IMG/VR virus record: IMGVR_UViG_3300044675_004297
Span: 1-41,786 of that record
Direction: 5' to 3' (one strand)
Source: a virus
Length of the DNA: 41,786 bases
In this document: positions 8,553 to 41,743 of the stretch, piece after piece
Numbering within the stretch: the first letter of the stretch is position 1
Layout of the letters: each line of letters begins with the position of its first letter
Notes under the pieces: model-generated
The model's database searches: none
The model's input: only the letters and a program-made list of their open reading frames with translations
What the model was told of the DNA's origin: nothing
Translations under genes and position numbers: made by a program

Positions 8553-11500
8553 GATCTGGTCTTTTTGCTGCAGCCGCGAGTAGCGGCAGTGGGCCTGGTG
8601 CTCCTGGCGTTGTGACTAATGTTGCAGGCGCAAGAGGTGTCGGCCAAATCAGTGTTACGTGGACCGCACCGGTAAGTAACGGTGGAAGCCCGATTACAAA
8701 CCATGAAATTCAAGTTTCGCCAAATGCTACAATCGGAGGCGGTACACTTTACGCACCATTCACCTTCGCAACGAACACCAATTCAGAGTACAACAGCACC
8801 CTGCTCTCATTAGCTGTCCAACCAGACGGCAAAATTATTGCTGGAGGCGGCTTTTTCTCGTTTAACGGTGTCCCTTCTGAATATATCGCGCGGCTTAACG
8901 CTGACGGCACGACTGACACGCTATTCGCCGCGAATATAGATACAGCGCTTAATAGTAGCGTAGACGCAATAGCTATTCAGTCAGACGGCAAAATCGTCGC
9001 CGGAGGAGCGTTTACAGTGTTTAACAGCACAACAGCTAATCGCATTATGCGTTTAAACGCTGACGGCACTCTCGATATGACGTTTGTGACAAACAACGGC
9101 ACTGGAGCTAATGCTATAGTGCAATCGGTGGCTATTCAGTCAGACGGAAAAATTCTTGTTGGAGGCCAATTTACAACATTTAACGGTGCGACTGTTAATC
9201 GTATTGTGCGTCTTAATGCTGACGGCACGCGAGATGCAACGTTTACAACAAACGCAGGCACGGCGTTTAACGGTAACGTGCTTTCGATAGCCATTCAGTC
9301 AGACGACAAGATACTCGTTGGCGGGAACTACACAACATTTAACGGTGCAACTGCTGGTAACATTGTGCGTCTTAATGCTGACGGCACGCGAGATGCAACG
9401 TTTACAACAAACGCAGGCACGGCGTTTAACGGCAGTGTATACTCAATGGCTGTTCAGTCAGACGGTAAAATTATTGCTGTAGGACTTTTCACAGGATTTA
9501 GTGGTACAACCGTTAATGGCATAGCACGTCTTAATGCTGACGGTACACGTGACACGTCGTTTACAACAAATACAGGCACGGCGTTTAACGGTTTAGCGGC
9601 TGCAGTAGCTATTCAGTCAGACGGTAAGATTATTGCTGTAGGAGACTTTACAACATTTAACGGTGCGACTGTTAATCGTATTGTGCGTCTTAATGCTGAC
9701 GGCACGCGAGATGCAACGTTTACAACAAACGCAGGCACGGCGTTTGAAGATTACGTTACTGTCGTGGCTATTCAGCCAAATAGCACAATTGTTGTTGGAG
9801 GTGTCTTTACGGCGTTTAACGGCACGACAGCTAACCACATAGCAGGTATTAACGCTGACAGGGAATGGCTGATTCCTGTGTTAAGCGGTTCTTCTGACAC
9901 TTCTTACACGTATACAGGTCTCTCGGCCGACACTTCATACACGTTTAGAGCACTGGCAAAGAACGCCATTGGAAGCGGTCCGTACTCTGCAGAATCTGCC
10001 GCAGTGTCGACTGCAGCAGTTCCAGGAGCGCCGGGGACACCTACACCTACAGCAAGTCAAAACACGCAGGTCCCGCTTTCATGGACAGCAGCAGCCAACA
10101 ACGGTTCTGCTATTACGGACTATGTAATTCAGTATTCAACTTCTGCAACGTTTGCTTCATCTGTTACAACGTTTGCTGATGGAACATCTGCTTCAACTAG
10201 CGCAACTGTGACTGGTCTCTCTAACGGAACTACTTACTACTTCCGAGTAGCAGCAGTCAACGCCGTAGGTACCGGTCCATACTCTTCTATCTCAACAAGC
10301 GCGGTTCCTTCTACTGCCCCCGATGCGCCAACAAGCGTGTCTGGAACGCCAAACGGAGTAACGGCATCAACCGTGTCATGGACTGCGCCGGCAAGCGCAG
10401 GCGGCTTAAGTATAGACGGTTACAAGGTTGAATACGCCTTATCGCCTTATTCAAGCTATACAGTTTTCAACGCGAATACAGGAACTACCGATACGTCAAT
10501 ATCTGTAACTGGACTGAACAACGGAGGATCTTACAAGTTTAGAGTTTCAGCAAGAAACGCAGCTAATGGTTTTGGCGCCACAGCAGAATCCGGAGTTGTA
10601 GTTACAAACATAGTTCCTGGTGCTCCAACAATAGGAACTATGACTCGCGGTACTGGCACTAGTACTACTGACACGCTGGCATGGACTGCACCTACCGCAA
10701 ATGGTGGCAGTGCAATTACTGGATATGTTTATACTCTTTCCACAGACTCTTATGTAGCCGCTACGGCAACAACCAATGGCCTTACTACTTCTCAGGCTTT
10801 TAACCCTGGTTACACAACAACCACTACAACAGTAAAAATAGCAGCGGTTAATAGTCTTGGCACTGGCCCGTTCAGTGCCGCGTCCGCGGTCGGCTACGGT
10901 GGCTGGTCTAACCCTAGCTTCTCAATTGACGGAAGCGATGCCTGCGCTGACTGCGCTGCATGCCCCGATTGCGCTGCATGTACTGGAGGCTGTGATGGTT
11001 GCGGAAGTCGCACAATCACAGGTTCTAAAGGAACAATCACCGGTTCTAAAGGAACAAGGTCCAAAACTTGTTACAAGTGGACAAGAAGCGGAAACACTGA
11101 AAACGCTGGCCCATTCGATCAAGGCGGCACCGCCGACTGTACTGCCGCCTTCTCTACTTGTACTGCTGGGACATGCGGCTGTACGGCTGGAACATGCGGC
11201 TGCTCTGCTTGCTCAGGTTCGTGGGCCGCTACGTCTGTTGGTTCATTTACAGCAGACGCCGACCAATATGGGTCGCCATATTCCTACGTTAGATTTCAAG
11301 AAGTCGATGGTGCCGGCAATGGAACCGGAAACTACTACTATGCAAGAGACAGTGGTGATTTCTGTGAAGGCGTTAACTGCTATGAACACTGTTCATATAC
11401 TGCAGAATACTGCAGCGTAGGTGGCTACAGAACTACATTTGTAGGAATTAAGAGATACAGATTGCTATCACAATGTGGCGGTGGCGGTGGTGGCACCTAA
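8549..11500 (+). CDS. Large adhesin: FN3 domains, nested seven-blade delta-60 propeller, Cys-rich tip
   Basis: A 983-residue protein starting at GTG within GTGA at the end of the fibre gene. Order: first half of a fibronectin type III domain (about 12-65, WTAPVSNGGSPITNHEIQ); seven 53-residue delta-60 repeats (88-440, each with QSDGKIxxGG and RLNADG); the second half of the same FN3 fold (about 446-486, YTYTGLSADTSYTFRALA); three more FN3 domains (to about 785); then a Cys-rich region (792-983) with about 20 cysteines, a duplicated ITGSKGT, and a Gly-rich end. FN3 and delta-60 domains bind surfaces or carbohydrate in other phage and bacterial proteins, so a receptor-binding or virion-decoration role is likely. 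Its stop overlaps the convergent minus-strand stop. Confidence 0.8.
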   Translation: MRSGLFAAAASSGSGPGAPGVVTNVAGARGVGQISVTWTAPVSNGGSPITNHEIQVSPNATIGGGTLYAPFTFATNTNSEYNSTLLSLAVQPDGKIIAGGGFFSFNGVPSEYIARLNADGTTDTLFAANIDTALNSSVDAIAIQSDGKIVAGGAFTVFNSTTANRIMRLNADGTLDMTFVTNNGTGANAIVQSVAIQSDGKILVGGQFTTFNGATVNRIVRLNADGTRDATFTTNAGTAFNGNVLSIAIQSDDKILVGGNYTTFNGATAGNIVRLNADGTRDATFTTNAGTAFNGSVYSMAVQSDGKIIAVGLFTGFSGTTVNGIARLNADGTRDTSFTTNTGTAFNGLAAAVAIQSDGKIIAVGDFTTFNGATVNRIVRLNADGTRDATFTTNAGTAFEDYVTVVAIQPNSTIVVGGVFTAFNGTTANHIAGINADREWLIPVLSGSSDTSYTYTGLSADTSYTFRALAKNAIGSGPYSAESAAVSTAAVPGAPGTPTPTASQNTQVPLSWTAAANNGSAITDYVIQYSTSATFASSVTTFADGTSASTSATVTGLSNGTTYYFRVAAVNAVGTGPYSSISTSAVPSTAPDAPTSVSGTPNGVTASTVSWTAPASAGGLSIDGYKVEYALSPYSSYTVFNANTGTTDTSISVTGLNNGGSYKFRVSARNAANGFGATAESGVVVTNIVPGAPTIGTMTRGTGTSTTDTLAWTAPTANGGSAITGYVYTLSTDSYVAATATTNGLTTSQAFNPGYTTTTTTVKIAAVNSLGTGPFSAASAVGYGGWSNPSFSIDGSDACADCAACPDCAACTGGCDGCGSRTITGSKGTITGSKGTRSKTCYKWTRSGNTENAGPFDQGGTADCTAAFSTCTAGTCGCTAGTCGCSACSGSWAATSVGSFTADADQYGSPYSYVRFQEVDGAGNGTGNYYYARDSGDFCEGVNCYEHCSYTAEYCSVGGYRTTFVGIKRYRLLSQCGGGGGGT
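8810..9868 (+). repeat. Seven 159-bp delta-60 repeats
   Basis: Units begin at 8810, 8969 and every 159 bp to 9764. Units 3, 4 and 6 share long stretches of identical DNA around the segment encoding RLNADGTRDATFTTNAGTAF, whereas units 1, 2 and 7 have diverged. Seven units of this size fit a seven-bladed beta-propeller. Confidence 0.9.
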
Positions 11501-29732: not shown

Positions 29733-30206
29733 ATGGGAACATTATTCAATCAGTGGCTCACGCAAACGCGTCGTCTTCAAACGGAAGCGTATAACATCGA
29801 CTACAGCAAGTTTCAAGGAACTGAACATGAGAACCTCAATACTTTGATTGAGTACATTCGCTGGAACATGCTTGCTATTGACGACGAACTTGCTGAAGTC
29901 CGTCAAGCTATTTCTTGGAAGCCTTGGCAGCACGATGACCCGTACGCAGATCGTCATGAGGTTCTCAAGGAATGCGTTGACGTTCTTCATTTTGTTGCAA
30001 ACATTCTCTGTGCAGTAGATGCTACTGATGAAGAGCTCGATGCCGAGTATCTTAAAAAAATGCAAAAAAATGCTGATCGTCAAAAGAACGGTTATCGTGT
30101 TCTCGATGAAGGTATGAAGTGCACGCTGTGCGTGCGTGCTTTGGACGACTACGATACTGACGCATGTATTGTTGTCGGCTGCCCATTTAAGCAAAAGACA
30201 GACTAA
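29733..30206 (+). CDS. All-alpha dNTP pyrophosphatase (MazG/dUTPase-dCTPase type) with Cys tail
   Basis: A 157-residue protein. IDDELAEVRQAI (Glu52, Glu55) and HEVLKECVDVLHF (Glu80, Asp83) form the ExxE...ExxD magnesium site of all-alpha NTP pyrophosphatases, the superfamily including MazG, dimeric dUTPases and T4 gp56 dCTPase-dUTPase. The likely reaction is dUTP or dCTP to dNMP plus pyrophosphate. The C-terminal 30 residues have four Cys (130, 133, 145, 150), a possible zinc site not usual in the family. AGGAG lies upstream of the ATG, and the stop overlaps the next start (TAATG). Confidence 0.78.
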   Translation: MGTLFNQWLTQTRRLQTEAYNIDYSKFQGTEHENLNTLIEYIRWNMLAIDDELAEVRQAISWKPWQHDDPYADRHEVLKECVDVLHFVANILCAVDATDEELDAEYLKKMQKNADRQKNGYRVLDEGMKCTLCVRALDDYDTDACIVVGCPFKQKTD

Positions 30207-30979: not shown

Positions 30980-32245
30980 ATGTCAAAACCGACATTTATT
31001 GACTGTAACGGACTTGCAGGGTTTATGAGCTACGGCTTTGTAAACGCTGGTATGGAAATGTCACTTCGCACAGGAACGCTAGACTTTGGGAATCGGGTTG
31101 CTGAACTCAATCGTCATCATCTTGGCAACAAATGGGACTCATTTTTTTCAAGTGATGATGAAGAATGGCCGATCGAACAAGCAGACGTAGTTATGGGTTG
31201 CCCACCGTGCTCTGGTTGGTCTGTATGGTCCGGCACTGTTAACCGCGGGCCTGACGCAGCAGCACACGAACACACGCGTGCGTTTATGCGGTACGCGGCT
31301 AGAGTAAAACCCAAAATGATCGTCTTCGAATGTGTGCAACAGGCTTACACGCAGGGACGTGACACAATGGTTAAGTATCGCGACATGGTCGAAGAACTGT
31401 CTGGCAAGAAATACGACCTGTATCACGTCAAAATGAACAACCTTCAAGTTGGTGGATTCTCGTACCGTGCTCGCTATTTCTGGACTGCTGTTGAGCAAGG
31501 AATGCCGTTTGGCGCAGTTGCGCACGCGCCTGAAGTAATGCCTACGCTTATGGACGTTATTGGCGATCTTGAGCATATGGAAATTACATGGAATGCACAA
31601 AAGTACAGCGGCCAAGGTTCATCGTTTGTGCAAGGTCTTCGCAATCAGAGTGGTGTTGTTGACGGTCACATGTCAAAAGAAACATCGAACTCAAATCGCG
31701 TCAAAGAAATCTTTGATATTCTTGGTGCAGACGGTTGGGGCGTATCTATGACTATGGACGATATGCTACGCAAAGCTGTTAATGAAAACGGTGGCAAGTT
31801 TCCACAGGCATGGGCTTCTTACGAAGAAAAGTATCTTGCCAATGATTTCAAGATGGGCTACTCGATGCCATCCCGCTGGGACGGTAATTCTTGGTGCCAT
31901 GTTCTTACTGGCGGTGGACTTGATCACACTGTCCATCCAACGCAAGCGCGCCTCATTACTCATCGTGAAGCTGCTCGTATTCAAGGTCTTCCAGACAACT
32001 GGGAGTTTAAAGACGCTCGCGGGTACTCAGCATTGAGCGCAACGTGGGGTAAAGCCGTTCCCGCTCAGGCAGGAAGATGGATTGGTGACACTGTAGTCGC
32101 TGCGCTAGCAGGGCAACCAAATGGTCCTCAGGGCGAACTCATTGGGGACCGTGAATGGTTAATCGACACTGATAAGGGATTTACCCGCCATTACGCAGCC
32201 AATAAGTGGTACCCAAACAAGTTTTCCAAGCGCGTCAAGAAGTAG
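30980..32245 (+). CDS. DNA cytosine C5-methyltransferase (variant motifs)
   Basis: A 421-residue C5 methyltransferase. Motif I is FIDCNGLAGFMSYGF, motif IV GCPPCSGWS (Cys77 nucleophile), motif VI FECVQQ where most enzymes have ENV, motif VIII GGFSYRARYF (Arg163 and Arg165), motif IX RLITHREAARIQGLPDNW, and motif X WGKAVPAQAG where GNAVP is usual. The core catalytic Cys and Arg residues are kept, so activity is likely. It may protect phage DNA from restriction. No restriction enzyme gene adjoins it. Alternatives are a modified reaction or dCMP-independent base modification. Target specificity cannot be read from the sequence. Confidence 0.82.
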   Translation: MSKPTFIDCNGLAGFMSYGFVNAGMEMSLRTGTLDFGNRVAELNRHHLGNKWDSFFSSDDEEWPIEQADVVMGCPPCSGWSVWSGTVNRGPDAAAHEHTRAFMRYAARVKPKMIVFECVQQAYTQGRDTMVKYRDMVEELSGKKYDLYHVKMNNLQVGGFSYRARYFWTAVEQGMPFGAVAHAPEVMPTLMDVIGDLEHMEITWNAQKYSGQGSSFVQGLRNQSGVVDGHMSKETSNSNRVKEIFDILGADGWGVSMTMDDMLRKAVNENGGKFPQAWASYEEKYLANDFKMGYSMPSRWDGNSWCHVLTGGGLDHTVHPTQARLITHREAARIQGLPDNWEFKDARGYSALSATWGKAVPAQAGRWIGDTVVAALAGQPNGPQGELIGDREWLIDTDKGFTRHYAANKWYPNKFSKRVKK

Positions 32246-32937: not shown

Positions 32938-33270
32938 ATGCGGGATCTTAGAACCGGCGAATGCTTGTGGTCTGAGTGGACGGGTGATGGTCTAGATGTA
33001 GATTCATCGGAACCTGTCTTCTTTACAGAAGGTTATGTCGACATCGAACATGAAGTAGTTAGCCGAGCGCTAGCTTCTGCCTTTCAGAGAGACGGTTCTG
33101 CAGTTACGCTCGGCGACGGATATAAGCTTGTCGATCGAGCAATTGTCACTTGTGGCTATGCAGGATTCGTAGACGGGGACATTCATTTAGCAGTTTGTGA
33201 TGAAACTGGAGAAACCCGCGAGGGCGACGAAGTAGACGAAGTTCTTGAAATTACCTGGGTGTCGTTTTAA
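32938..33270 (+). CDS. Unknown acidic 110-residue protein
   Basis: I do not recognise this protein. It is strongly acidic (many Asp and Glu), with an FFTEGYVDIEHEVVSRAL region and a beta-rich centre and C-terminus. No Shine-Dalgarno precedes its ATG, and a TATAAT box sits 10 nt upstream, suggesting translation from a near-leaderless mRNA. Its stop overlaps the WhiB ATG (TAATG), so it is probably co-expressed with that regulator. Confidence 0.6.
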   Translation: MRDLRTGECLWSEWTGDGLDVDSSEPVFFTEGYVDIEHEVVSRALASAFQRDGSAVTLGDGYKLVDRAIVTCGYAGFVDGDIHLAVCDETGETREGDEVDEVLEITWVSF

Positions 33271-33794
33271 TGGCGTCTAAATTTGGCGATATGAGCTGGC
33301 ACGAGGATGCCGCGTGTCGCCAACCAAAAAACAAATGGATGGCTAAGTTTTTCTACTCAAATGTGCCCGCTGAAAAATATGACGCAAAAAACTTATGTTT
33401 TACATGCCCGCAGCGTCGTACGTGTCTTAAATGGGCATTGGACAATAAACAAATCTGGGGAATTTGGGGAGGCAAAGACGAATCAGAAATTCGTCGTGCG
33501 CTTTCAGTTTCTCACACAGGGCAGGAAATACGTCGTCAACGTTTTCCAAACTGCCCGTACTGTGGTGCACGACCAGCTAAGCTTAGCGTTGTCGTAGCTG
33601 ACTCGCCCGAGGGTGGCCGATGGACAACAATGAAGCTTGTTGTTTGTAGTGAATGTGAGTTCACTTGGCGCAGTCGCACTAGTGCAAATGCGGTAAATGC
33701 GTATCACGCAAGTAAAGCAGCAAAAAAGTCTAAGACTTCTAAAGGGTTTACTCCGCCTCTACCGGCGTCTGATCCTGAGCCTGAAGCTGACTAA
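33270..33794 (+). CDS. WhiB-family iron-sulfur regulator with C-terminal zinc ribbon
   Basis: A 174-residue protein. Residues 10-75 are a WhiB domain: Cys16 in AACRQPK, Cys43 and Cys46 in LCFTCPQ, Cys52 in TCLKWAL, then the GIWGG turn (64-68) and EIRRAL. The four Cys residues bind a [4Fe-4S] cluster, and WhiB proteins bind the primary sigma factor in Actinobacteria. Residues 95-129 add CPYCG and CSEC, a zinc-ribbon pair not present in typical WhiB proteins. A basic linker and an acidic tail follow. It likely reprograms host or phage transcription. Phage WhiB proteins such as that of mycobacteriophage TM4 repress a host WhiB function. Start overlaps the upstream stop. Confidence 0.9.
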   Translation: MASKFGDMSWHEDAACRQPKNKWMAKFFYSNVPAEKYDAKNLCFTCPQRRTCLKWALDNKQIWGIWGGKDESEIRRALSVSHTGQEIRRQRFPNCPYCGARPAKLSVVVADSPEGGRWTTMKLVVCSECEFTWRSRTSANAVNAYHASKAAKKSKTSKGFTPPLPASDPEPEAD

Positions 33795-33940: not shown

Positions 33941-34546
33941 TTAATGCTTAACGTATTCTTCGTCTAAAGCTTTTTCAATTATTTTTCGAAGTCTGTCTAG
34001 CTCGACGTCGGCTGGGTCGCAGTATCCGCTTTCGTAGGCGTAATTTAGCAACAATCCATTGGCAAGTCGTGCGATTCTTTTGCCGTACTTGTCGACAACA
34101 AACTTTTCAAAGTTGCCATTGATCGGAGCACTTTCTCCGTCAGGATTGAGGAAGTCGTAAATTTGATGAATTTTACGGCCAGTATTTTCGTTGTCACGGT
34201 CTTCACGCGAGACTATTAGTTCAGTGAAAGGATACGTCACGTTCCACTCACGGCGTGCGTACTCTTCAGATACCTTACCGTTTTCGATACCGTTTTCGTA
34301 TTCACCATAAGTCACCTTAGCTCCGCAGTAGTCATTCGTAGGAATAGCGACTACTTGAAATCCGCGGTCTTTATAGTCTTGGTATAGCTGTTCAATAATC
34401 CCGAACTGTGGCGCGTTTCCGCAGCTGCCTGTTGTGTTGATAAACAATGTGACACGCCCGCGAAACTGTTCTAAGAAATTGTCTTCTCCATCTACGCCTT
34501 TGATGGGAATGTCGTAGACCGATGAATAGGTATCGTTGCTGCTCAT
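33941..34546 (-). CDS. Glutathione-peroxidase-like thioredoxin-fold protein
   Basis: A 201-residue protein of the glutathione peroxidase family: VYDIPIKGVDGEDNFLEQF, then VTLFINTTGSCGNAPQFG with Cys42 at the peroxidatic site and Gln47, a long helix (EQLYQDYKDRGFQVVAIPTND) and FEKFVVDKYGKRI at the C-terminal strand. The catalytic tetrad normally is Cys, Gln, Trp, Asn; the Trp of the WNF motif is Gly here (NGNFEKF). Cys74 in NDYCG could be a resolving Cys, pointing to a thioredoxin-linked peroxidase. AGGAG lies upstream. It follows three dioxygenase genes in the same operon, so it may remove peroxide or serve redox balance near the iron enzymes. Confidence 0.78.
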   Translation of the reverse strand: MSSNDTYSSVYDIPIKGVDGEDNFLEQFRGRVTLFINTTGSCGNAPQFGIIEQLYQDYKDRGFQVVAIPTNDYCGAKVTYGEYENGIENGKVSEEYARREWNVTYPFTELIVSREDRDNENTGRKIHQIYDFLNPDGESAPINGNFEKFVVDKYGKRIARLANGLLLNYAYESGYCDPADVELDRLRKIIEKALDEEYVKH

Positions 34547-34555
34547 TTTTTTCTC

Positions 34556-35320
34556 CTAAAAGTTCGTTACTTTATTTTGATACAAGTATTCTTGCCCGAC
34601 GTCTTTTTTTAGGTTTAAAAGCCATGTGTGCGGACTTCTTACAGTGTTTGGGGTTTCGCTTGGGCTTTGCAATTGACCAGTGTCGCCGTGGCAAAACCAT
34701 TGTAGATATACTACACGCTCGCCTGCTGTAACTGGTGTTACTTCGTGTGCACCTAAGTACGTTGATGGGTACATCACAATGTCTCCTGCCTCCAGTCTTA
34801 TAGATACGTCCCACATTCTAAAGTAAAGATCTCCGCCCTCGTAGTTACTAGACCACGAAAGTCCCGCGGTCACTGTGTTATGCAGTGGCATCTGATTTAT
34901 CGGCTTGTAGTTTTCGTCAAGTGGTATTGCAGAATCTGAATGGCACCCGATATTTTGTCCGTCTGAATACGTAGCAATGTGGCCTTTAGTTCTCCAAGCG
35001 ATGGCTTCTATTACTACTGGAAAGATTTTGCAATACTCAACAATGCATCTATACAGAGCGTCTTCGCACGCTTGTGAAAAGTCAACAAAGTGCTGCGGAG
35101 TATCGTCGACGACAGTCTCTACAAATCGTCCTGGTGCGATGTCGATCGACTTTCGGTCAAACTCATATCCAGATGAATTGACTACAGTGTCATCTTTGTC
35201 GAAGAAGTGTTGTTCTTTTCTGCTGTTTAAGTACCCCATGTACTTTTCAATCAGCGCGTCATCGATGTCTATAGCGTTCTTAAAGAGAACAATTCCATTT
35301 CCAAGATTGCTAATTTGCAT
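34556..35320 (-). CDS. 2-oxoglutarate/Fe(II) dioxygenase, prolyl-4-hydroxylase-like (R type)
   Basis: A 254-residue non-heme iron dioxygenase. GCHSD gives His127 and Asp129, GAHEV gives His192, and GERVVY gives Arg202 for 2-oxoglutarate; NYEGGDLYF and AGDIVMYPSTY complete the double-stranded beta-helix. I choose ATG 35320 because GAGGAG lies just upstream; a TTG at 35332 is also in frame but lacks a site. The start overlaps the preceding gene end. Family members hydroxylate proline, lysine or other residues of proteins or free amino acids; the substrate here is unknown. Confidence 0.88.
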   Translation of the reverse strand: MQISNLGNGIVLFKNAIDIDDALIEKYMGYLNSRKEQHFFDKDDTVVNSSGYEFDRKSIDIAPGRFVETVVDDTPQHFVDFSQACEDALYRCIVEYCKIFPVVIEAIAWRTKGHIATYSDGQNIGCHSDSAIPLDENYKPINQMPLHNTVTAGLSWSSNYEGGDLYFRMWDVSIRLEAGDIVMYPSTYLGAHEVTPVTAGERVVYLQWFCHGDTGQLQSPSETPNTVRSPHTWLLNLKKDVGQEYLYQNKVTNF

Positions 35321-36194
35321 TGTACTCCTCAAATGAAAAACCTGGAATTGACAATGTTATACCACTATTCTTTATTAGACGGACGAAGTCGTTTCTAAGC
35401 GTTGGCATGTACACGTTTGTTGCAGTTCTAGACACGTCAGGATCTTTGTTCGGATCAGTGACGCTTTCGTTGACGGCAGTGTTTGGTGTGCCGTGAGAAT
35501 ACCAACCTAGATACGAGTAGCGCACTCCAGAGCTAACTGGCTTAACCTCGTGTGTCGCCATATAGTTTGACGGGAACATCAAGACGTCTCCACGCTTAGG
35601 TTGAATTTCAATGTCTAAGTAGTTGAAGTAATGATGTCCGCCGCAAAAAGAAGTACTAGTGACTTGGTCGTCTGTGTCTACACAGTCATTTAGATACATA
35701 AGCACGGTCGTTGTATTGCGCGTGGCTAGTTGATCACCAGGTTCTGGTAAGCCATAAACATAGTCAGCACTTGTATCAGAATGCGCGCCAAGATACACAC
35801 CGCGCTTATATGAAACAACGTGTCCTTTGACTTTCCACCAAATATTTTTGTAAGCCATTGGAAACAAGGTTAAATACTTTAAGAGATACTTATCTCGAGA
35901 GTCTTCAAGAAAATCTAAAAAGCCTCTAAACTCGCCATCATTTGTTGTATGCATTTGCGATGCGCGACGTGGCATTTGTTCGACTGTGTCAAGGTCAAAG
36001 TAGTAGCCACTTTTATTTAAAAAAGATTCTTTTCCAGTCTCTGGATTAATAGCCTTTGTATACATCTGAGACTGCTCTGCTTGTAGTTCACGCTCGACCC
36101 AGTTGATTACGGTTTCGCAGTGCCAATCGAGCGCGCCTCTAAAGATGACGACACCGCCACCTAAGTGCTCTGGAGCTGCGTCATTGAACTTCAC
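35310..36194 (-). CDS. 2-oxoglutarate/Fe(II) dioxygenase, prolyl-4-hydroxylase-like (R type)
   Basis: A 294-residue dioxygenase with GTG start in a GTGA overlap with the upstream gene. GAHSD gives His138 and Asp140, ATHEV His215, GVRYSYLGW Arg225; the framework has YLNDCVD, GGHHYFNYLDIEI and RGDVLMFPSNY. N-terminus LGGGVVIFRGAL resembles the neighbour at 36191-37048 (LGGGTVVFRNAI), and the pair share the C-terminal GWxxxG element, so they arose by duplication. Probably a protein hydroxylase of unknown target. Confidence 0.88.
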   Translation of the reverse strand: MKFNDAAPEHLGGGVVIFRGALDWHCETVINWVERELQAEQSQMYTKAINPETGKESFLNKSGYYFDLDTVEQMPRRASQMHTTNDGEFRGFLDFLEDSRDKYLLKYLTLFPMAYKNIWWKVKGHVVSYKRGVYLGAHSDTSADYVYGLPEPGDQLATRNTTTVLMYLNDCVDTDDQVTSTSFCGGHHYFNYLDIEIQPKRGDVLMFPSNYMATHEVKPVSSGVRYSYLGWYSHGTPNTAVNESVTDPNKDPDVSRTATNVYMPTLRNDFVRLIKNSGITLSIPGFSFEEYNAN

Positions 36195-37048
36195 TTTACG
36201 TGATCTTTTTGTCTATTTGACACTGCAAGCAAGTGCGACGGTCTAGTGCTAGCGTCTGGGTATTTTTCAACAATGTATTGCTCGTAGTCTTCAATAATTG
36301 TCTTCATCCAATACTGACCGCCAATGGCAGAAGAACTTTTTTCATGCTGGGGATTGACACCGCGCTTTTCGTCTTCTGATCCCTGGGCAAACCAACCAAG
36401 ATACGAGTAACGTGTCCCGCGTGTTACTTCTAGGATTTCATGAGCGCCAATGTAGTTTGCTGGCATCATGCAGATATCCCCTGTGCGTGGCTTGATGTCG
36501 ACATCAAAGTATGGAACTGTCATATGACCACCAGAAAAAGAGTACGGAGCTTCTTTTTCGCCTTCATCAACACAGTCATTAAAATAGATAAGCGCACTTA
36601 GCACATTGCGTGTTGCGTGTTCTGTTGGTGGAACAGCGCCGTAGCGGTAATTGACATCATTGTCAGAGTGAAATCCCAAGGCGCCGCCTTTGTCGTAGGC
36701 CAAGATATGACCCTCACTTCTCCACCATAGCGACTGAAGAATGGCTGGAAACATCTCGATGTATTGCAGCAGCGCTGCGTACAAGGCTTTTTCACACTCA
36801 GTGAAGAATGGGTGATCTAGGTTCATCATTCTCACTGGTGCTTTACTTGTTTTTTCAAGATCGTAAATGAATCCGCCTTGATTGACTGCGTGAAGTGGCT
36901 TACCGTTTTCGTCTTTGATAATGGTAAACATTTGGCTTCGAGCCTCTTCTTTAAGCTGCTCAAGGTGGGGAATAACTACGTGCTGCGGCACTTCGATTGC
37001 ATTTCTAAATACAACTGTTCCGCCGCCCAAATGCTCAACGCTACTCAT
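36191..37048 (-). CDS. 2-oxoglutarate/Fe(II) dioxygenase, prolyl-4-hydroxylase-like (R type)
   Basis: A 285-residue dioxygenase. GFHSD gives His127 and Asp129, GAHEI His203, GTRYSYLGW Arg213; YFNDCVD and TGDICMMPANY complete the fold. I take ATG 37048, where homology with the paralogue begins; the frame is open upstream to 37387 but crosses a divergent gene. There is no Shine-Dalgarno; instead TGATACTAT ends 7 nt before the ATG, so the transcript should start at the start codon. First gene of the 37048-33941 operon. Confidence 0.86.
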   Translation of the reverse strand: MSSVEHLGGGTVVFRNAIEVPQHVVIPHLEQLKEEARSQMFTIIKDENGKPLHAVNQGGFIYDLEKTSKAPVRMMNLDHPFFTECEKALYAALLQYIEMFPAILQSLWWRSEGHILAYDKGGALGFHSDNDVNYRYGAVPPTEHATRNVLSALIYFNDCVDEGEKEAPYSFSGGHMTVPYFDVDIKPRTGDICMMPANYIGAHEILEVTRGTRYSYLGWFAQGSEDEKRGVNPQHEKSSSAIGGQYWMKTIIEDYEQYIVEKYPDASTRPSHLLAVSNRQKDHVK

Positions 37049-37055
37049 GCTAGCA

Positions 37056-37100
37056 ATAGTATCATTAGTCGTAGCAAAAAATAATGAAGCAAGATAATAT
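37056..37100. promoter_or_regulatory. Divergent pair of leaderless-type promoters
   Basis: On the minus strand TGATACTAT (37056-37064) lies 7 nt from the ATG at 37048. On the plus strand TAATAT (37095-37100) lies 6 nt from the ATG at 37107. Neither gene has a Shine-Dalgarno. The two start codons are only 58 nt apart, so one regulator bound here could control both hydroxylase genes. Confidence 0.55.
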
Positions 37101-37106
37101 GCATTC

Positions 37107-37775
37107 ATGAAAGAACCTGCTTTTTGGGAAGACGTAATTGCCGATCTGCCAGTGTGTGTCGCTTTTAAAGAAAACTGGAGGCAGATTCTTAAAGAAGCTC
37201 GTGAGTACCTTGCAATTAACTCTGATTTTCTGATCTCGTATCCAGCTATAGAAGTAGAAGATCTCGGCAGGCCGGGAGAAAAAATAAAAGTATATTCTGG
37301 AAACTCATGGAAAGTAGCTACCGCCGGAATAAAAACTGACGATGCTATGACTTCTCTTGGCGGTCCGTTTATTGCAAAGTATGTCAAAAAGACCGTTGGG
37401 ATAGAGCTAAGTGACGTTGTTTCGTCTGTGGCTTCTGTGCTTCCAACAATTCATAAAATCGCAAAACCGCTTGAAGACGCTGGGCACATGTTTAATGGAG
37501 TGTTTAGCGTAGTCAGCCCAGGCACAGTGATCGCTCCGCATAGAGGCGACAGCAATCTAATGAGAGTTCATCTTGGTTTGGTGTGCGATCCTCTATGCGA
37601 AATAACTGTAGGGCCAGACAAGCGGACTTGGAAAGAAGGAGAACTTCTAGCCTTTAAAGACGGAGGAACCTACCCGCATAGTGTCGCACACAGTGGGACA
37701 CATGACAGGCTTATACTTATATTTGATTTGACACTTGACTATTTGCGGTCAGTGATAAATCACCCTATGCTGTAG
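37107..37775 (+). CDS. Aspartyl/asparaginyl beta-hydroxylase-like dioxygenase
   Basis: A 222-residue protein read opposite to its neighbours. Residues 130-210 match the Asp/Asn beta-hydroxylase (PF05118-type) fold: SPGTVIAPHRGDSNLMRVHLGL (His145, Arg153, His155), WKEGELLAFKDGG, YPHSVAHSGTHDRLILIFDLT (His191, His195, Arg201). The family uses Fe(II) and 2-oxoglutarate to hydroxylate Asp or Asn residues, or in bacteria lipids and peptides. This is a different family from the five P4H-like enzymes. Leaderless-type promoter upstream; its last 11 bases overlap the convergent gene at 37765. Confidence 0.8.
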   Translation: MKEPAFWEDVIADLPVCVAFKENWRQILKEAREYLAINSDFLISYPAIEVEDLGRPGEKIKVYSGNSWKVATAGIKTDDAMTSLGGPFIAKYVKKTVGIELSDVVSSVASVLPTIHKIAKPLEDAGHMFNGVFSVVSPGTVIAPHRGDSNLMRVHLGLVCDPLCEITVGPDKRTWKEGELLAFKDGGTYPHSVAHSGTHDRLILIFDLTLDYLRSVINHPML

Positions 37776-38529
37776 CCGCGTTTTTAATAAAGACAGTGTA
37801 TCCGTAAAACTCTGAAACATGGAACGTATGTCCATCGAGAGTTTTTAGAACCTTATGCAATTCCGTGTGCGGATGAGAGTGATACGAGTTTCTGTAAATA
37901 CGTGTAGAGTCATTGGTAGACGCGATATGAAGAATTCCGCCAGGGGCAAGTGAATCAACATATTTCTTAAGAAGGTCTGGCTCTCCCAAAATATCCCACA
38001 CCATTAGAACGATCATGTCAAATTTTTCAGATTCTGAAATACCGTTTTCTAGATCTGCGTAGTCTATGACGTCGTAGTCGTCAATGGTGTACTGGCCATG
38101 TACGCCGTACATGTGCTGTTCGAAAGCGTCTAAGAACGTGTTATTCATAAACGTGAAATAAGGCGCAGCGGAGGGTTCGTTGTGTGCCCACGAATACAAC
38201 CCCGCTGGAGTTCCGGGGACAGAGCTTAGTATTCTTTTTGGATTCTTTGCAAGTAAAAAAGACTCTACAGACGCGCTAACACGCTTAAGCAAAGAGAACC
38301 ATTCGTTTTCTGCGTCCTTGAAAAGATCATACAAAAAAATCTCTCCATTGCCTCCGCCGCCGACAGCAACAATTCTTTTATCAACGCTGTATGCAGCTCT
38401 TTCATTCAAAATAGCTGTTGCGGCTTCGCTCTGCGCCTGGCCAAAGTCGTCTCCAAATGTTCCGCTGTCAAGCATTGTAGAAGACAAAAACTCCGACACC
38501 AGAGACATTCTTAAGATTGTGTTATCCAC
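37765..38529 (-). CDS. SAM methyltransferase-like protein with degenerate motif I
   Basis: A 254-residue protein. I choose GTG 38529 because AAGGAG lies 9 nt upstream and the gene then overlaps the upstream stop by 8 nt; a TTG at 38589 has no site. The C-terminal half has the class I methyltransferase pattern: YDVIDYADLENGI, FDMIVLMVWDILGEPDLLKKYVDSLAPGGILHIAS. The expected glycine-rich motif I is not canonical (KRILSSVPGTPAGLYSW or VAVGGGGNGEIF are candidates). It may be inactive or use another nucleotide. Possible partner of the dioxygenases. Confidence 0.55.
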   Translation of the reverse strand: MDNTILRMSLVSEFLSSTMLDSGTFGDDFGQAQSEAATAILNERAAYSVDKRIVAVGGGGNGEIFLYDLFKDAENEWFSLLKRVSASVESFLLAKNPKRILSSVPGTPAGLYSWAHNEPSAAPYFTFMNNTFLDAFEQHMYGVHGQYTIDDYDVIDYADLENGISESEKFDMIVLMVWDILGEPDLLKKYVDSLAPGGILHIASTNDSTRIYRNSYHSHPHTELHKVLKTLDGHTFHVSEFYGYTVFIKNAATA

Positions 38530-38830
38530 GAGCAATAACTCCTTTAATGATCTGTCGGTGCCACCAGTACCTGCGAGCTGAGGTGACAAGATGGTAGTTC
38601 TCGGTTCTTAAAAAGTCGATTGCAGAGTGAGAACGAGACACTGCTGAAGGAGAAGAGTAGTGAAAGTTGTTTCTTAAACCACTAACTATGTCGTCTATTG
38701 TAATTAGATCTAGGTTGTCTTCTGTAATTCCTGCTAAAATGCAAATAACAGCAAGCTTATAGTCTACTCTTTCTAGGTCACTTTGCGGATTGTAAAGAGC
38801 CGCTTCTGTTTGAGATCTAGTTCTCTTCAT
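38522..38830 (-). CDS. Small unknown protein, possible relative of the DPD-TWE family
   Basis: About 102 residues from ATG 38830, which has GAGG 8 nt upstream; an ATG three codons earlier overlaps that site. Contains ERVDYKLAVICILAGITEDNLDLITIDD, a helix followed by a G-x-x-x-D-x-h turn that resembles the small proteins at 39117-39589 weakly. The C-terminus is basic and Tyr/Trp rich. Function unknown. Confidence 0.55.
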   Translation of the reverse strand: MKRTRSQTEAALYNPQSDLERVDYKLAVICILAGITEDNLDLITIDDIVSGLRNNFHYSSPSAVSRSHSAIDFLRTENYHLVTSARRYWWHRQIIKGVIARG

Positions 38831-39113
38831 ACATTTCATCCTCTGGCATGTCTATTTCTGGGGTAACAGTCCACGGCTCAGAAGGATCTCCACTCTGCAG
38901 CAGCTCGCAAAAAAACGCAGCGCCGTCTGCAAGTTGAAAAGAAAACTGGTTTGGTACCCAGTGTATAACCTGATCGTTTCTTGACGGGTTGTGGATTGGC
39001 TCACTAATGTGGGGGTAAGCGGGATCTTCGTCCGGGCATATTTTATATTTTCCAGTTGAAATTGCAAATTCAATAATTGGCAACTTCAGTGGAATTTTTG
39101 GCTTTATATTCAC
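38817..39113 (-). CDS. Unknown acidic 98-residue protein
   Basis: Not recognised. GTG start, 3 nt after the upstream stop. The sequence is rich in Pro and aromatic residues early (IKPKIPLKLPIIEFAI) and acidic at the end (MPEDEMYEEN). It contains ICPDEDPAYPHISEPIHN, which has Cys and His residues but no clear metal site. Its position in the coupled operon suggests it works with the dioxygenases or DUF6065-like protein. Confidence 0.5.
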   Translation of the reverse strand: MNIKPKIPLKLPIIEFAISTGKYKICPDEDPAYPHISEPIHNPSRNDQVIHWVPNQFSFQLADGAAFFCELLQSGDPSEPWTVTPEIDMPEDEMYEEN

Positions 39114-39116
39114 GGT

Positions 39117-39347
39117 TTACACCGCACTTACGCGCGAGTGTGCAATCACTTGAAGTCGTAGGCATTCATACGCGTTCCAGATGTCAGAACTGTTGTCTTC
39201 TGGTACTGGATTTTCCCATGTTTCACTGAGGTCATCTACGTCAACACCCAAAAGAGACGCGAGATTGACAATTGAATACTCTAGATACTCAATTGCGTTC
39301 GCGTTCGCCTTTGCTTTTAATTCATCTGAAAGTGTTGTAAATGTCAC
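39117..39347 (-). CDS. Small helical protein of the DPD-TWE family
   Basis: A 76-residue protein with GTG start in a GTGA overlap. Pattern: AIEYLEYSIVNLASLLGVDVDDLSETWENP, matching the 39344-39589 and 12208-12459 products in the order helix, small residue, D-x-D, hydrophobic, acidic, T-W/F-E. No known domain recognised. Confidence 0.6.
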   Translation of the reverse strand: MTFTTLSDELKAKANANAIEYLEYSIVNLASLLGVDVDDLSETWENPVPEDNSSDIWNAYECLRLQVIAHSRVSAV

Positions 39348-39589
39348 AGCGATTCCATTTTGGTCTTAATTTTAGCAATAGCGTCAAGAGTAAGTGAAAT
39401 TTCTAATTCTCCCTGACGAGGAACACCAGCCGTGTGCCCGTCACGTGGCTCGAACGTTGTCTCGTCAAACGTGTCTGGGTCGTAGCCTTCCATAACCAAT
39501 AAATTGATGAGGCGACGCTCTGAATTTTGAAGACTGCGTGTGTACAATGCCCGCAGTTCTCCTTCTGTCATTTTAGTTGTAAAGTCCAT
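39344..39589 (-). CDS. Small helical protein of the DPD-TWE family
   Basis: An 81-residue protein with ATG at 39589 and AGAGGAAAT upstream. Segment LINLLVMEGYDPDTFDETTFEP matches the small-family core, followed by a helix rich in Lys and Glu. It overlaps the next gene by 4 bases. Function unknown. Confidence 0.62.
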   Translation of the reverse strand: MDFTTKMTEGELRALYTRSLQNSERRLINLLVMEGYDPDTFDETTFEPRDGHTAGVPRQGELEISLTLDAIAKIKTKMESL

Positions 39590-39663
39590 ATTTCCTCTGC
39601 GGTTTCTATTGCTAGTAAAGCTGGTCGTGTTGTTTCAATTATACGTCGTACAAGCGCTGATGT

Positions 39664-40365
39664 CTACGTTTCCGGGGCATTTAGCTTTACTGGCCCAGTA
39701 TGTTGAGGGCCAATTCGTACGCCATCTGCATCTAAGCCAGTTTTAATTCCTTTAGTCCATGTCCACGGATTTTCAATATTATTCTTCATTTTGATGTCGT
39801 TGTACTTCACGCGCGACTCGATCAGTTCAGGATTGTCCCATAAATTTGATACTTCAAATTCAACAGACGGCATAGTGTCTTCTTTGTAAATAGAAAAAAA
39901 GCAAAATGGCGACCCTGCTGGGAAAGTAACTGGTTCACCTACTTTAGTGATCTTCCAGTTCATTTGTACTTCATCAGGCCACCAAGAACTGGGAATAGCC
40001 GCGGCAAGTGGAACAGCGCCATCGATGAAATAGTTAGGTGACCCGGTGAGCCACGTCGCGTATCCTTCTTCGGTATTGACTGTCCAGCCCATCCCAATCG
40101 AAATAATTCCAATAATAGATGGAAACGCTACTTGACGTCCGTTTTGCTCACCGCCGCTAATGACAGTGACGGGGTTATTTCCACCGTTCCACTGGACTAC
40201 TAGGTCCTCTTCAAGTACTAGCTCCCAGCCCATAACGTTAGCAACAGTCATCGGTAGGCACTGGTACGCATGCTTATTGTGAGTGTTGTCCATCCATTCA
40301 CGCTTCATACGAGACTGCTCGACACGCGGAGATGCTTGATGGTTTCTCGTAAGGCGCACTTTCAT
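39664..40365 (-). CDS. DUF6065-like protein
   Basis: A 233-residue protein. The segment AYQCLPMTVANVMGWELVL, with later DLVVQWNGG and GWTVNTEEGYATWLTGSPNY, resembles the DUF6065 family, which I recall as unknown-function proteins often near 2-oxoglutarate dioxygenase genes in cyanobacteria and phages. Many Trp and Pro residues suggest a beta-rich fold. ATG overlaps the dioxygenase stop (ATGA), so the two are coupled. Confidence 0.55.
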   Translation of the reverse strand: MKVRLTRNHQASPRVEQSRMKREWMDNTHNKHAYQCLPMTVANVMGWELVLEEDLVVQWNGGNNPVTVISGGEQNGRQVAFPSIIGIISIGMGWTVNTEEGYATWLTGSPNYFIDGAVPLAAAIPSSWWPDEVQMNWKITKVGEPVTFPAGSPFCFFSIYKEDTMPSVEFEVSNLWDNPELIESRVKYNDIKMKNNIENPWTWTKGIKTGLDADGVRIGPQHTGPVKLNAPET

Positions 40366-41081
40366 TGTGCTAAAAACCTGCCGTCAGCACTTCGCTGACT
40401 ACCGTGTACTGGCAGTCCGGCGCCTTCTGTTGCTTTAGTGCCGTCAATGTTTTCTCCATAGCCTTGTTTGTGGGTCCTATCATTGTAGTCAAACATAGTT
40501 ACAGCGGCGTACTTTATTCCGCTCGTGACTGGTTTTGACGCGTGGGCATAGATATACGTAGAAGGGAAAAATATTATGTCTCCATATGACGGCTTAAATG
40601 TCACATCAATAAACGGAAACCACAATTCACCACCTTCATAGTCGTCATTCAGGTACATTACAGACGAAACAGTGCAGTTGTATGAAAACCCGTGGTCAGT
40701 GTGCAAACCAAAATGTTGCCCAGTGCCGTAACGTACATAGTTTATAGCTTCCATAAAATCCATACGGATGTTATAGCGAGACTCATAGTCACGCAGGCAC
40801 TCTGTCAGGCGAATCACCGTGTCATTGTAAACATTTTTCATTTCAGAAAACTGCGGAGGAAGGTGCTGAATATGGGTAGGACCCATCTTGCAATCTACGC
40901 AGTCGCGGTATTCTGGCATTTTTTGTGCATCACCGACAAGAGCGTCCATCCACATGAACGGCGCCATTGTGCTAGTCCCGATGGTGTCTTCAAGACGCTC
41001 GATTAGGCGTAATTCTTTTGGTAGTGCATTTCTATAGACAATAAGACCAAATTTAGGATCACCAATGTATTCGTGTTGCAT
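40362..41081 (-). CDS. 2-oxoglutarate/Fe(II) dioxygenase, prolyl-4-hydroxylase-like (K type)
   Basis: A 239-residue dioxygenase. GLHTD gives His127 and Asp129, YAHAS His180, SGIKYAAV Lys190; VMYLNDDYEGGELWFP and SYGDIIFFPSTY complete the beta-helix. Unlike three cassette members it has Lys, not Arg, at the 2-oxoglutarate carboxylate position, as in collagen prolyl-4-hydroxylases. ATG overlaps the upstream stop (TAATG), with GGAG upstream. The CVDCKMGPTHIQH segment near residue 62 is unique to this copy. Confidence 0.88.
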   Translation of the reverse strand: MQHEYIGDPKFGLIVYRNALPKELRLIERLEDTIGTSTMAPFMWMDALVGDAQKMPEYRDCVDCKMGPTHIQHLPPQFSEMKNVYNDTVIRLTECLRDYESRYNIRMDFMEAINYVRYGTGQHFGLHTDHGFSYNCTVSSVMYLNDDYEGGELWFPFIDVTFKPSYGDIIFFPSTYIYAHASKPVTSGIKYAAVTMFDYNDRTHKQGYGENIDGTKATEGAGLPVHGSQRSADGRFLAQ

Positions 41082-41743
41082 TATTTATTTTCTCCGTTTA
41101 CAGATTCTGCAAGCTTAAATACTTGCAAAAATACTTCAATTATCGTCGCGTCCGACAAGAATAAAGAATACGTATACTTGTTACCACTAGTAATTTCTGC
41201 GACTTCGTGCGGATACATAATTGTCGCTGGAAAAAGTATAAGCGTGCCGGGCGCAGGTTTTGTTTTGTAGTCTTGCTTTGGAAACCACAGTTCACCGCCC
41301 TCATAGTCATCATTAAGATATACAACTGAAGAGTACATGATCACTGGCGGCGGAGCTGCTATCCCACTGCCGAGAAACTGACTAACGTCTATAGAACCAT
41401 CTCGTGGCGACGCCGCGGAGTCAGAGTGTCTTTCAAGTAAATCACCGATTTCCCAGCGGTTAAATCTGCCAGTGTCATCGTAGCGTTGAATGTTTGCGCC
41501 AAACTGGTAACTAGCTATGTTTTCTATCGCGGTAATCACGCTTTCTAGCTCGATGAAGTCAGCGATGGGGTCGGGATTAGCGTACGAAGTTGGTGTGCCA
41601 GGTTGCCAGTCATCCTCTGTGAGTACTGTACGAATCCTGTCTACTTCACTAGGTGTAAGAAAATCTTTTACAACAATGATGTTTCTATCAGAACCACCAC
41701 GCTTCATATTTTCAATAGTAGTTAGTTGCTTTTGTTTGTCCAT
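41081..41743 (-). CDS. 2-oxoglutarate/Fe(II) dioxygenase, prolyl-4-hydroxylase-like (K type)
   Basis: A 220-residue dioxygenase. ERHSD gives His106 and Asp108, YPHEV His179, SGNKYTYSLF Lys189; VVYLNDDYEGGELWFPKQDY is nearly shared with the neighbour at 40362-41081, so these two are paralogues. First gene of an operon running to 37765. The ribosome site is weak (AAAGACAG or a distant AGGA). An alternative internal start is not needed because the N-terminus (IIVVKDFLTPSEVDRI) is family-like. Confidence 0.87.
   Translation of the reverse strand: MDKQKQLTTIENMKRGGSDRNIIVVKDFLTPSEVDRIRTVLTEDDWQPGTPTSYANPDPIADFIELESVITAIENIASYQFGANIQRYDDTGRFNRWEIGDLLERHSDSAASPRDGSIDVSQFLGSGIAAPPPVIMYSSVVYLNDDYEGGELWFPKQDYKTKPAPGTLILFPATIMYPHEVAEITSGNKYTYSLFLSDATIIEVFLQVFKLAESVNGENK

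What the first reader, a model, noticed from the sequence alone, without database searches (positions are those of the whole stretch)
34556..41743. Cassette of six 2-oxoglutarate/Fe(II) dioxygenases
Five P4H-like enzymes (34556, 35310, 36191, 40362, 41081) and one Asp/Asn hydroxylase-like enzyme (37107) lie in 7.2 kb, all with intact HxD/H iron ligands. Single dioxygenases are common in aquatic phages; six from two families, coupled to DUF6065-like, methyltransferase-like, small-protein and peroxidase genes, look like a dedicated multi-step oxidation system. Substrates could be tail proteins, host proteins, or bases.
Basis: partly seen in the sequence, partly recalled or inferred. Interest (0 to 1): 0.85.

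Follow-up and report, generated by a model that had tools for sequence, protein, structure and literature searches.

The report
Phage enzyme kit modifying proline-rich tail proteins
This bacterial virus carries the end of a conserved row of about a dozen oxygen-using enzymes that sits directly behind a tail-protein gene ending in a 'Tyr/Phe-Phe-Pro-Pro' repeat, and such repeats and such enzymes occur together across many viruses, so the enzymes very probably decorate that tail protein, giving a testable answer to why phages carry proline-hydroxylase genes.

Summary
Five PF13640 2-oxoglutarate dioxygenases and one PF05118 AspH-like enzyme lie at the stated places. The AspH-like enzyme has HxG...H, not HxD...H. 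The record stops inside the cassette. A sister contig, 100% identical over 9,485 bp, continues with six more PF13640 genes, a weakly sulfotransferase-like gene, and then an fn3 tail protein ending in (YFPP)9FFPP-GFK, itself preceded by a tail-fibre gene.

The order is conserved: repeat protein, dioxygenases including subfamilies Q and K, DUF6065, small proteins, and often MT/GPx-like genes and C-B-A. 27 of 31 cassette records carry [FYH]FPP arrays; 0 of 26 others, including this truncated window, do. Conversely, records picked only for the repeat have PF13640 in 25/25 (167 genes), against 1/25 (1 gene) of random viral records. Within contigs the genes cluster around the repeat (6-fold, 0/2000 rotations). 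Active sites are intact. K's nearest solved structures are peptidyl-prolyl hydroxylases, first among them chlorovirus vCPH.

Best explanation: a dedicated tail-protein hydroxylation kit acting on aromatic-Pro-Pro repeats, in some phages probably followed by glycosylation (a PF11397 GlcNAc-transferase lies nearby). No chemistry was tested. I found no paper describing the repeat or the pairing.

The parts
33941..34546 (-). glutathione-peroxidase-like gene (PF00255); recurrent cassette member
   Evidence: Pfam E 3.2e-13; GPx-like cluster in 32 of 45 locus sets
34556..35332 (-). PF13640 dioxygenase 'A' (HxD..H, R); ATG start possible at 35320
   Evidence: clade in 21 of 22 records, support 0.95
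35310..36194 (-). PF13640 dioxygenase 'B'; overlaps A
   Evidence: one copy per record in 21 records, support 1.0; query
36191..37048 (-). PF13640 dioxygenase 'C' (probable ATG start 37048; the ORF is open to 37387); 4-bp overlap with B
   Evidence: clade in 21 of 22 records with extra copies
37107..37775 (+). PF05118 aspartyl/asparaginyl-hydroxylase-like gene, HxG..H facial dyad; accessory, opposite strand
   Evidence: Pfam E 1e-22; alignment to AspH structures
37765..38589 (-). conserved 'MT' gene, methyltransferase-like by motif only
   Evidence: cluster in 31 locus sets; no family hit
38522..38839 (-). small conserved protein F (sp5 family)
   Evidence: cluster of 25 locus sets, alignment
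38817..39113 (-). small conserved protein G
39117..39347 (-). small conserved protein (sp4 family, LGVDxDxL motif)
39344..39589 (-). small conserved protein (sp8 family, GxDPDTFD motif)
39664..40365 (-). DUF6065 (PF19541), constant partner; predicted core resembles the dUTPase fold
   Evidence: E 3e-43; 59 of 120 repeat-selected loci; structure
40362..41081 (-). PF13640 dioxygenase 'K', prolyl-hydroxylase-like
   Evidence: nearest solved structures are peptidyl-prolyl hydroxylases; clade in 20 of 22 records
41081..41743 (-). PF13640 dioxygenase 'L'; the cassette continues beyond the window end (L060: six more dioxygenases and the [YF]FPP tail protein)

Best explanation
The genes are the distal part of a phage operon dedicated to modifying a virion tail protein after translation. 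Inferred chain: the tail operon makes a tail fibre and an fn3-domain tail protein whose C-terminus is a tandem [Tyr/Phe/His]-Phe-Pro-Pro array. Downstream P4H-like dioxygenases (core subfamilies Q and K, then C, B, A and lineage-specific extras) use Fe(II), O2 and 2-oxoglutarate to hydroxylate prolines, and possibly the aromatic or histidine residues, of the repeats. DUF6065 and the small proteins would help recognise or hold the substrate. In some phages hydroxyls are probably further decorated by a PF11397 GlcNAc-transferase, methyltransferases, or a sulfotransferase-like enzyme. The GPx-like gene would guard against peroxide or thiol damage. The product would be a soluble, stiff or adhesive decorated tail tip used in host contact. 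Shown: gene content, order, conservation, intact active sites, and association with the repeat. Inferred: substrate, chemistry, roles of the partners, and the biological benefit.
For: Sister contig identical over 9,485 bp places the (YFPP)9FFPP-GFK tail protein directly upstream of the operon and behind a tail fibre. Repeat-selected loci: 86/120 with PF13640-like ORFs (310) versus 1/120 (1) arbitrary loci; 298 of 310 lie downstream of the repeat. Whole records: 25/25 versus 1/25. Within contigs 2.04 versus 0.33 per 10 kb, 0/2000 rotations, 84/88 on the same strand. Reverse test: 27/31 cassette records carry the repeat, 0/26 others, including this truncated window. Still diverse after dereplication: 63 of 89 clusters at 80% identity. 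Arrays are conserved as protein while codons vary. H, D, H and R/K are invariant in 176-177 of 179 aligned dioxygenases, the rest being gaps. K model: top hits vCPH of PBCV-1, algal P4H with (Ser-Pro)5, PHD2, bacterial P4H. PF11397 GlcNAc-transferase near cassettes, E 1e-21; in Dictyostelium hydroxylated Skp1 proline receives GlcNAc (PMC9108976). Myovirus-type relatives place the cassette between tail fibre and tail sheath genes.
Against: No enzyme activity or modified virion has been measured. The repeat gene is outside this record and is inferred for this virus from an identical contig. G016/G017 have the cassette without FPP repeats; in the part read they have a short Gly-X-Y stretch and Gly-rich tail proteins instead. 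Some dioxygenases lie far from the repeat. The AspH-like enzyme matches lipid hydroxylases (LpxO, OlsC) weakly in NCBIfam. DUF6065 resembles dUTPase in fold and in bacteria shows no dioxygenase neighbours in short loci. The arbitrary control loci were not matched for habitat, although the within-contig test is.
Confidence: 0.72

Rival explanations
1. The dioxygenases hydroxylate host proteins (for example a translation factor, as Pseudomonas P4H does with EF-Tu) and sit near tail genes because late moron insertions accumulate there.
For: Foldseek hits include Pseudomonas P4H with EF-Tu and the Bacillus enzyme reported to modify EF-Tu.
Against: It does not explain the specific pairing with the [FYH]FPP repeat in both directions or the within-contig clustering, nor the need for about a dozen paralogues.
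Confidence: 0.08
2. The cassette makes or decorates a glycan, lipid or small molecule (surface or receptor modification) that the tail uses or that alters the host surface.
For: Neighbours include glycosyltransferase, methyltransferases, a weakly sulfotransferase-like gene and dehydrogenase-like genes; the AspH-like enzyme has weak LpxO/OlsC similarity.
Against: Sugar and methyl genes are accessory, while the repeat, K, Q and DUF6065 are the constant set; the K fold is peptidyl-prolyl-hydroxylase-like.
Confidence: 0.08
3. The enzymes modify phage DNA bases or act in DNA repair, as is usually suggested for cyanophage 2OG-Fe(II) oxygenases.
For: Published proposal for cyanophages (PMC9146016); a cytosine-C5 methylase lies at 30980-32245.
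Against: The cassette sits with tail genes, not replication genes; K resembles peptidyl hydroxylases rather than AlkB or TET/JBP enzymes.
Confidence: 0.04
4. The repeats and the dioxygenases travel together only because both belong to a mobile, rapidly exchanged tail module, without an enzyme-substrate relation.
For: Tail modules are exchanged as blocks; both sipho- and myovirus-type phages carry it.
Against: Repeat-only selection returns dioxygenases in 25 of 25 large records, and active sites are strictly conserved.
Confidence: 0.08

Closest known systems
PBCV-1 (chlorovirus) collagen prolyl 4-hydroxylase vCPH
   Same: Virus-encoded peptidyl-prolyl hydroxylase; nearest solved structure to gene K; 4-hydroxyproline in viral proteins was proposed (Eriksson 1999, title cited in PMC9301287).
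   Different: Eukaryotic virus; here an operon of about 11 paralogues with DUF6065, tied to aromatic-Pro-Pro tail repeats in phages.
Mimivirus collagen-modifying enzymes (e.g. R699 collagen glucosyltransferase)
   Same: A virus with its own repetitive structural proteins and enzymes that decorate their hydroxylated residues (PMC9546862).
   Different: Collagen Gly-X-Y and lysine chemistry in a giant virus; here [FYH]FPP repeats, mostly P4H-like enzymes, bacterial viruses.
Dictyostelium Skp1 prolyl hydroxylase / GlcNAc-transferase pathway
   Same: P4H-like hydroxylase followed by a GlcNAc-transferase on hydroxyproline (PMC9108976); PF11397 gene found near some cassettes.
   Different: Single regulatory proline in a cell protein; that PF11397 contains the Dictyostelium enzyme is from memory; in phages the pairing is only genomic.
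Cyanophage 2OG-Fe(II) oxygenases (phrog_61; nine copies in S-SZBM1)
   Same: Same superfamily, many copies per genome, some beside short tail fibre genes in S-H9-1 and S-MbCM7.
   Different: Reported as scattered; no [FYH]FPP repeats or DUF6065 found there; interpreted as DNA repair or auxiliary metabolic genes.

Membership tests
PF13640 2OG-Fe(II) oxygenase superfamily | HxD...H iron triad and Arg/Lys for 2-oxoglutarate | tested here: met
   H 177, D 177, H 176, R/K 176 of 179 aligned cassette dioxygenases, the rest gaps; family cut-off exceeded by all five window genes
Peptidyl-prolyl 4-hydroxylase (P4H/PHD group) | Fold closest to peptidyl-prolyl hydroxylases | tested here: met
   Model of K, pLDDT 82: vCPH, algal P4H, PHD2 and bacterial P4H head the list; phmmer best hits are bacterial P4H. 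Only K was modelled
Peptidyl-prolyl 4-hydroxylase (P4H/PHD group) | Hydroxylation of peptidyl proline | not testable with these tools
   needs enzyme assay or mass spectrometry
Aspartyl/asparaginyl beta-hydroxylase (PF05118) | AspH-type HxG...H facial dyad | tested here: met
   PHRGDSN aligned with PHTGPTN of 5apa and relatives
Aspartyl/asparaginyl beta-hydroxylase (PF05118) | Hydroxylation of Asp/Asn in EGF-like domains | not testable with these tools
   weak LpxO/OlsC similarity leaves the substrate open
Collagen-modifying viral system | Gly-X-Y collagen substrate beside the hydroxylases | tested here: not met
   no run of four Gly-X-Y in most adjacent tail proteins; only a short stretch in L074
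Dedicated repeat-modification cassette | Repeat protein and dioxygenases co-occur in both directions | tested here: met
Random moron genes / auxiliary metabolic genes | Independent, non-conserved insertions | tested here: not met
   conserved order and orthologous clades

The most novel reading that the evidence does not exclude
Environmental phages of several types share a previously undescribed class of tail protein built on [Tyr/Phe/His]-Phe-Pro-Pro arrays that is matured by an operon of up to about 11 distinct dioxygenases plus DUF6065, and in some by hydroxyproline glycosylation, giving a bacterial-virus counterpart of extensin, mussel-adhesive or collagen maturation.
Probability: 0.55. 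Interest if true: 0.9.

Novelty: new variant of a known kind. Interest (0 to 1): 0.8.

Why it matters
Prolyl-hydroxylase genes are among the more abundant viral auxiliary genes in some waters, yet a survey states that how viruses use them 'remains cryptic' (PMC9301287), and in cyanophages the 2OG oxygenases have been proposed to act in DNA repair (PMC9146016). A specific candidate substrate encoded next door makes the question directly testable. If true, phages run a multi-enzyme protein-maturation pathway for their tail tips, which bears on host recognition and on bio-inspired materials, and many 'auxiliary metabolic genes' would be virion-maturation genes.

Tried and rejected
BLASTN of the cassette against INPHARED: no match. 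DUF6065 tblastn against INPHARED: none, so no isolate in that collection at that sensitivity carries this core. Cyanophage neighbourhoods were read for proline repeats: none. Bacterial DUF6065 neighbourhoods (17 of 299 genomes over the cut-off) gave no conserved dioxygenase context within 3.7-kb loci. The two 'bacterial' genome hits L080/L081 are phage-like contigs with the same cassette and repeat. A first ligand count used wrong columns for the second His and the Arg/Lys and was redone. A first dereplication at 70% over 300 bp was meaningless, probably because the repeat DNA itself links loci, and was replaced. The small proteins as RiPP-like substrates were considered: they are conserved without an obvious variable core, so not favoured. 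Paper searches for DUF6065, FPPFFPP and viral tail hydroxylation found nothing on this pairing; only open-licence PMC papers could be searched.

Full report
What is in the window. The window is a whole linear IMG/VR virus record of 41,786 bp. It is a siphovirus-type phage: tape measure, Dit-like and minor tail proteins. A WhiB gene at 33270-33794 points to an actinobacterial host by established knowledge of WhiB. On the minus strand from 41743 down to 33941 runs a tightly packed operon with overlaps of 1-4 bp at several junctions (coordinates). Five genes exceed the PF13640 cut-off and one (37107, plus strand) the PF05118 cut-off. DUF6065 and a GPx-like gene are members. The AspH-like enzyme has the AspH-type HxG...H, not HxD. 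The five PF13640 enzymes are old paralogues: A, B and C are 28-35% identical and K/L share 60% over only 53 residues, so this is not a recent tandem amplification.

The cassette runs off the record. Scanning viral contigs with gene B gave 54 loci. One, L006/L060, is 100% identical to the window over 9,485 bp and extends beyond it: six further PF13640 genes and a 257-aa weakly sulfotransferase-like gene, then (reading upstream) a 430-aa fn3 tail protein and a tail-fibre gene. Whole-record counts of PF13640 are 3-11 in 32 records.

Conservation. In nearly all related loci the order is fibre, fn3 protein, dioxygenases, DUF6065, small proteins, MT, further dioxygenases or GPx, then C, B, A. A further divergent dioxygenase family (68 genes in 34 locus sets; E 5.5e-5 to PF13640) and TauD genes are added in relatives. 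In myovirus-type relatives the block lies between tail fibre and tail sheath genes. A tree of 179 dioxygenases from 22 records puts A, B, C, K and Q of the window lineage in clades spanning 21, 21, 21, 20 and 19 records; B and Q occur once per record, with supports 1.0 and 0.95. B was the search query, so its presence is by construction; the others are not. Ligands are invariant: H 177, D 177, H 176, R/K 176 of 179, the rest gaps. Distinct, apparently catalytic subfamilies are therefore kept side by side.

The repeat. Reading the fn3 protein revealed its end...APPYFPPYFPP...FFPPGFK, ten [YF]FPP units in L060; relatives have up to about 30. Over 119 distinct arrays 99% of units are FFPP, YFPP or HFPP. 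Both prolines use all four codons and Phe both codons, so the pattern is held at protein level rather than by DNA slippage alone.

Testing the association. Viral contigs were selected purely by a degenerate DNA pattern for FPP[FY]FPP[FY]FPP. Of 120 loci, 86 hold PF13640-like ORFs, 310 in 1.09 Mb, against 1 in 1.02 Mb in 120 loci chosen by an arbitrary 15-mer. In whole records, 25 of 25 repeat-bearing contigs have PF13640 (167 genes) against 1 of 25 arbitrary ones. Within the 21 repeat-bearing contigs whose repeat positions were printed, the density is 2.04 per 10 kb within 10 kb of the repeat and 0.33 elsewhere; none of 2000 rotations reached the observed count, and 84 of 88 nearby genes share the repeat gene's strand (the match lists were cut, so counts are slightly low). 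This within-contig test controls for phage lineage and habitat, which the arbitrary sets do not. In reverse, 27 of 31 cassette records carry the repeat; 26 other records (25 arbitrary plus the window, truncated at that end) carry none. Dereplication leaves 89 clusters at 80% identity, 63 with dioxygenases. Repeat-selected loci also hold DUF6065 in 59, K-type in 73 and Q-type in 66 of 120; the control set has one dioxygenase and nothing else. So repeat, Q, K and DUF6065 look like the core, with A/B/C, GPx, MT, AspH, sulfotransferase-like and glycosyltransferase genes as additions.

Mechanism. K was modelled (pLDDT 82). Its nearest solved structures are the PBCV-1 viral collagen prolyl hydroxylase, algal P4H bound to (Ser-Pro)5, PHD-type and bacterial prolyl hydroxylases. 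By established knowledge such enzymes act on proline in extended peptides. Ten loci also hold a PF11397-type GlcNAc-transferase. In Dictyostelium hydroxylated Skp1 proline is capped by a GlcNAc-transferase; that this enzyme belongs to PF11397 is from memory. DUF6065 models as a beta-rich protein whose core aligns with dUTPases (target-normalised TM about 0.7, query-normalised 0.4); its role is unknown and a substrate-holding function is inference. The benefit (solubility, stiffness, adhesion or receptor contact) is inference.

Limits. No chemistry was measured. The repeat gene is not inside this record. G016/G017 have the cassette without the repeat; G015 and G023 are fragments. The AspH-like enzyme, A, B and C could have other targets.

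Context. A survey names P4H as an abundant viral auxiliary gene of cryptic use, and cyanophage 2OG oxygenases were proposed to act in DNA repair. No paper found mentions the repeat or DUF6065.

Noticed in passing
L060:2729-2860 and many viral contigs (L082-L201): [FYH]FPP tandem arrays at or near the end of tail proteins are common in environmental viruses; some have FFP/FFPP mixes, GFFAPP units or end in Cys-rich domains.
   Followed up: partly
L064:4912-5874: A second fn3 tail protein in G030 ends in extensin-like (SPPPP)n, another proline-rich candidate substrate beside dioxygenases.
   Followed up: no
L074:3608-7876: The cassette phage without FPP repeats has Gly-rich tail proteins and a short collagen-like Gly-X-Y stretch.
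   Followed up: no
window 39664-40365: DUF6065 models with a core like dUTPase although no dUTPase sequence match was found; a separate dUTPase_2 gene lies at 29733-30206.
   Followed up: partly
window 38522-39589: Several small cassette proteins share a 'LGxDxDxLD'-like acidic motif and may be one divergent helical family.
   Followed up: partly
window 8549-11500: Tail protein with six DUF5122 beta-propeller repeats, fn3 domains and a Cys-rich C-terminus (CADCAACPDCAACTGGCDGC), a different tail-tip design from the FPP protein.
   Followed up: no
window 30980-32245: Cytosine-C5 DNA methylase gene close to the cassette but on the other strand, shared with close relatives.
   Followed up: no
L322 (S-H9-1) and L325 (S-MbCM7): In isolated cyanophages two 2OG-Fe(II) oxygenases closely follow short tail fibre genes, so tail-linked oxygenases may exist in culturable phages.
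   Followed up: partly
L066:5454-6560: Genes near some cassettes pair a weakly AurF-like (di-iron oxygenase) gene with a methyltransferase (c27/MT28).
   Followed up: no
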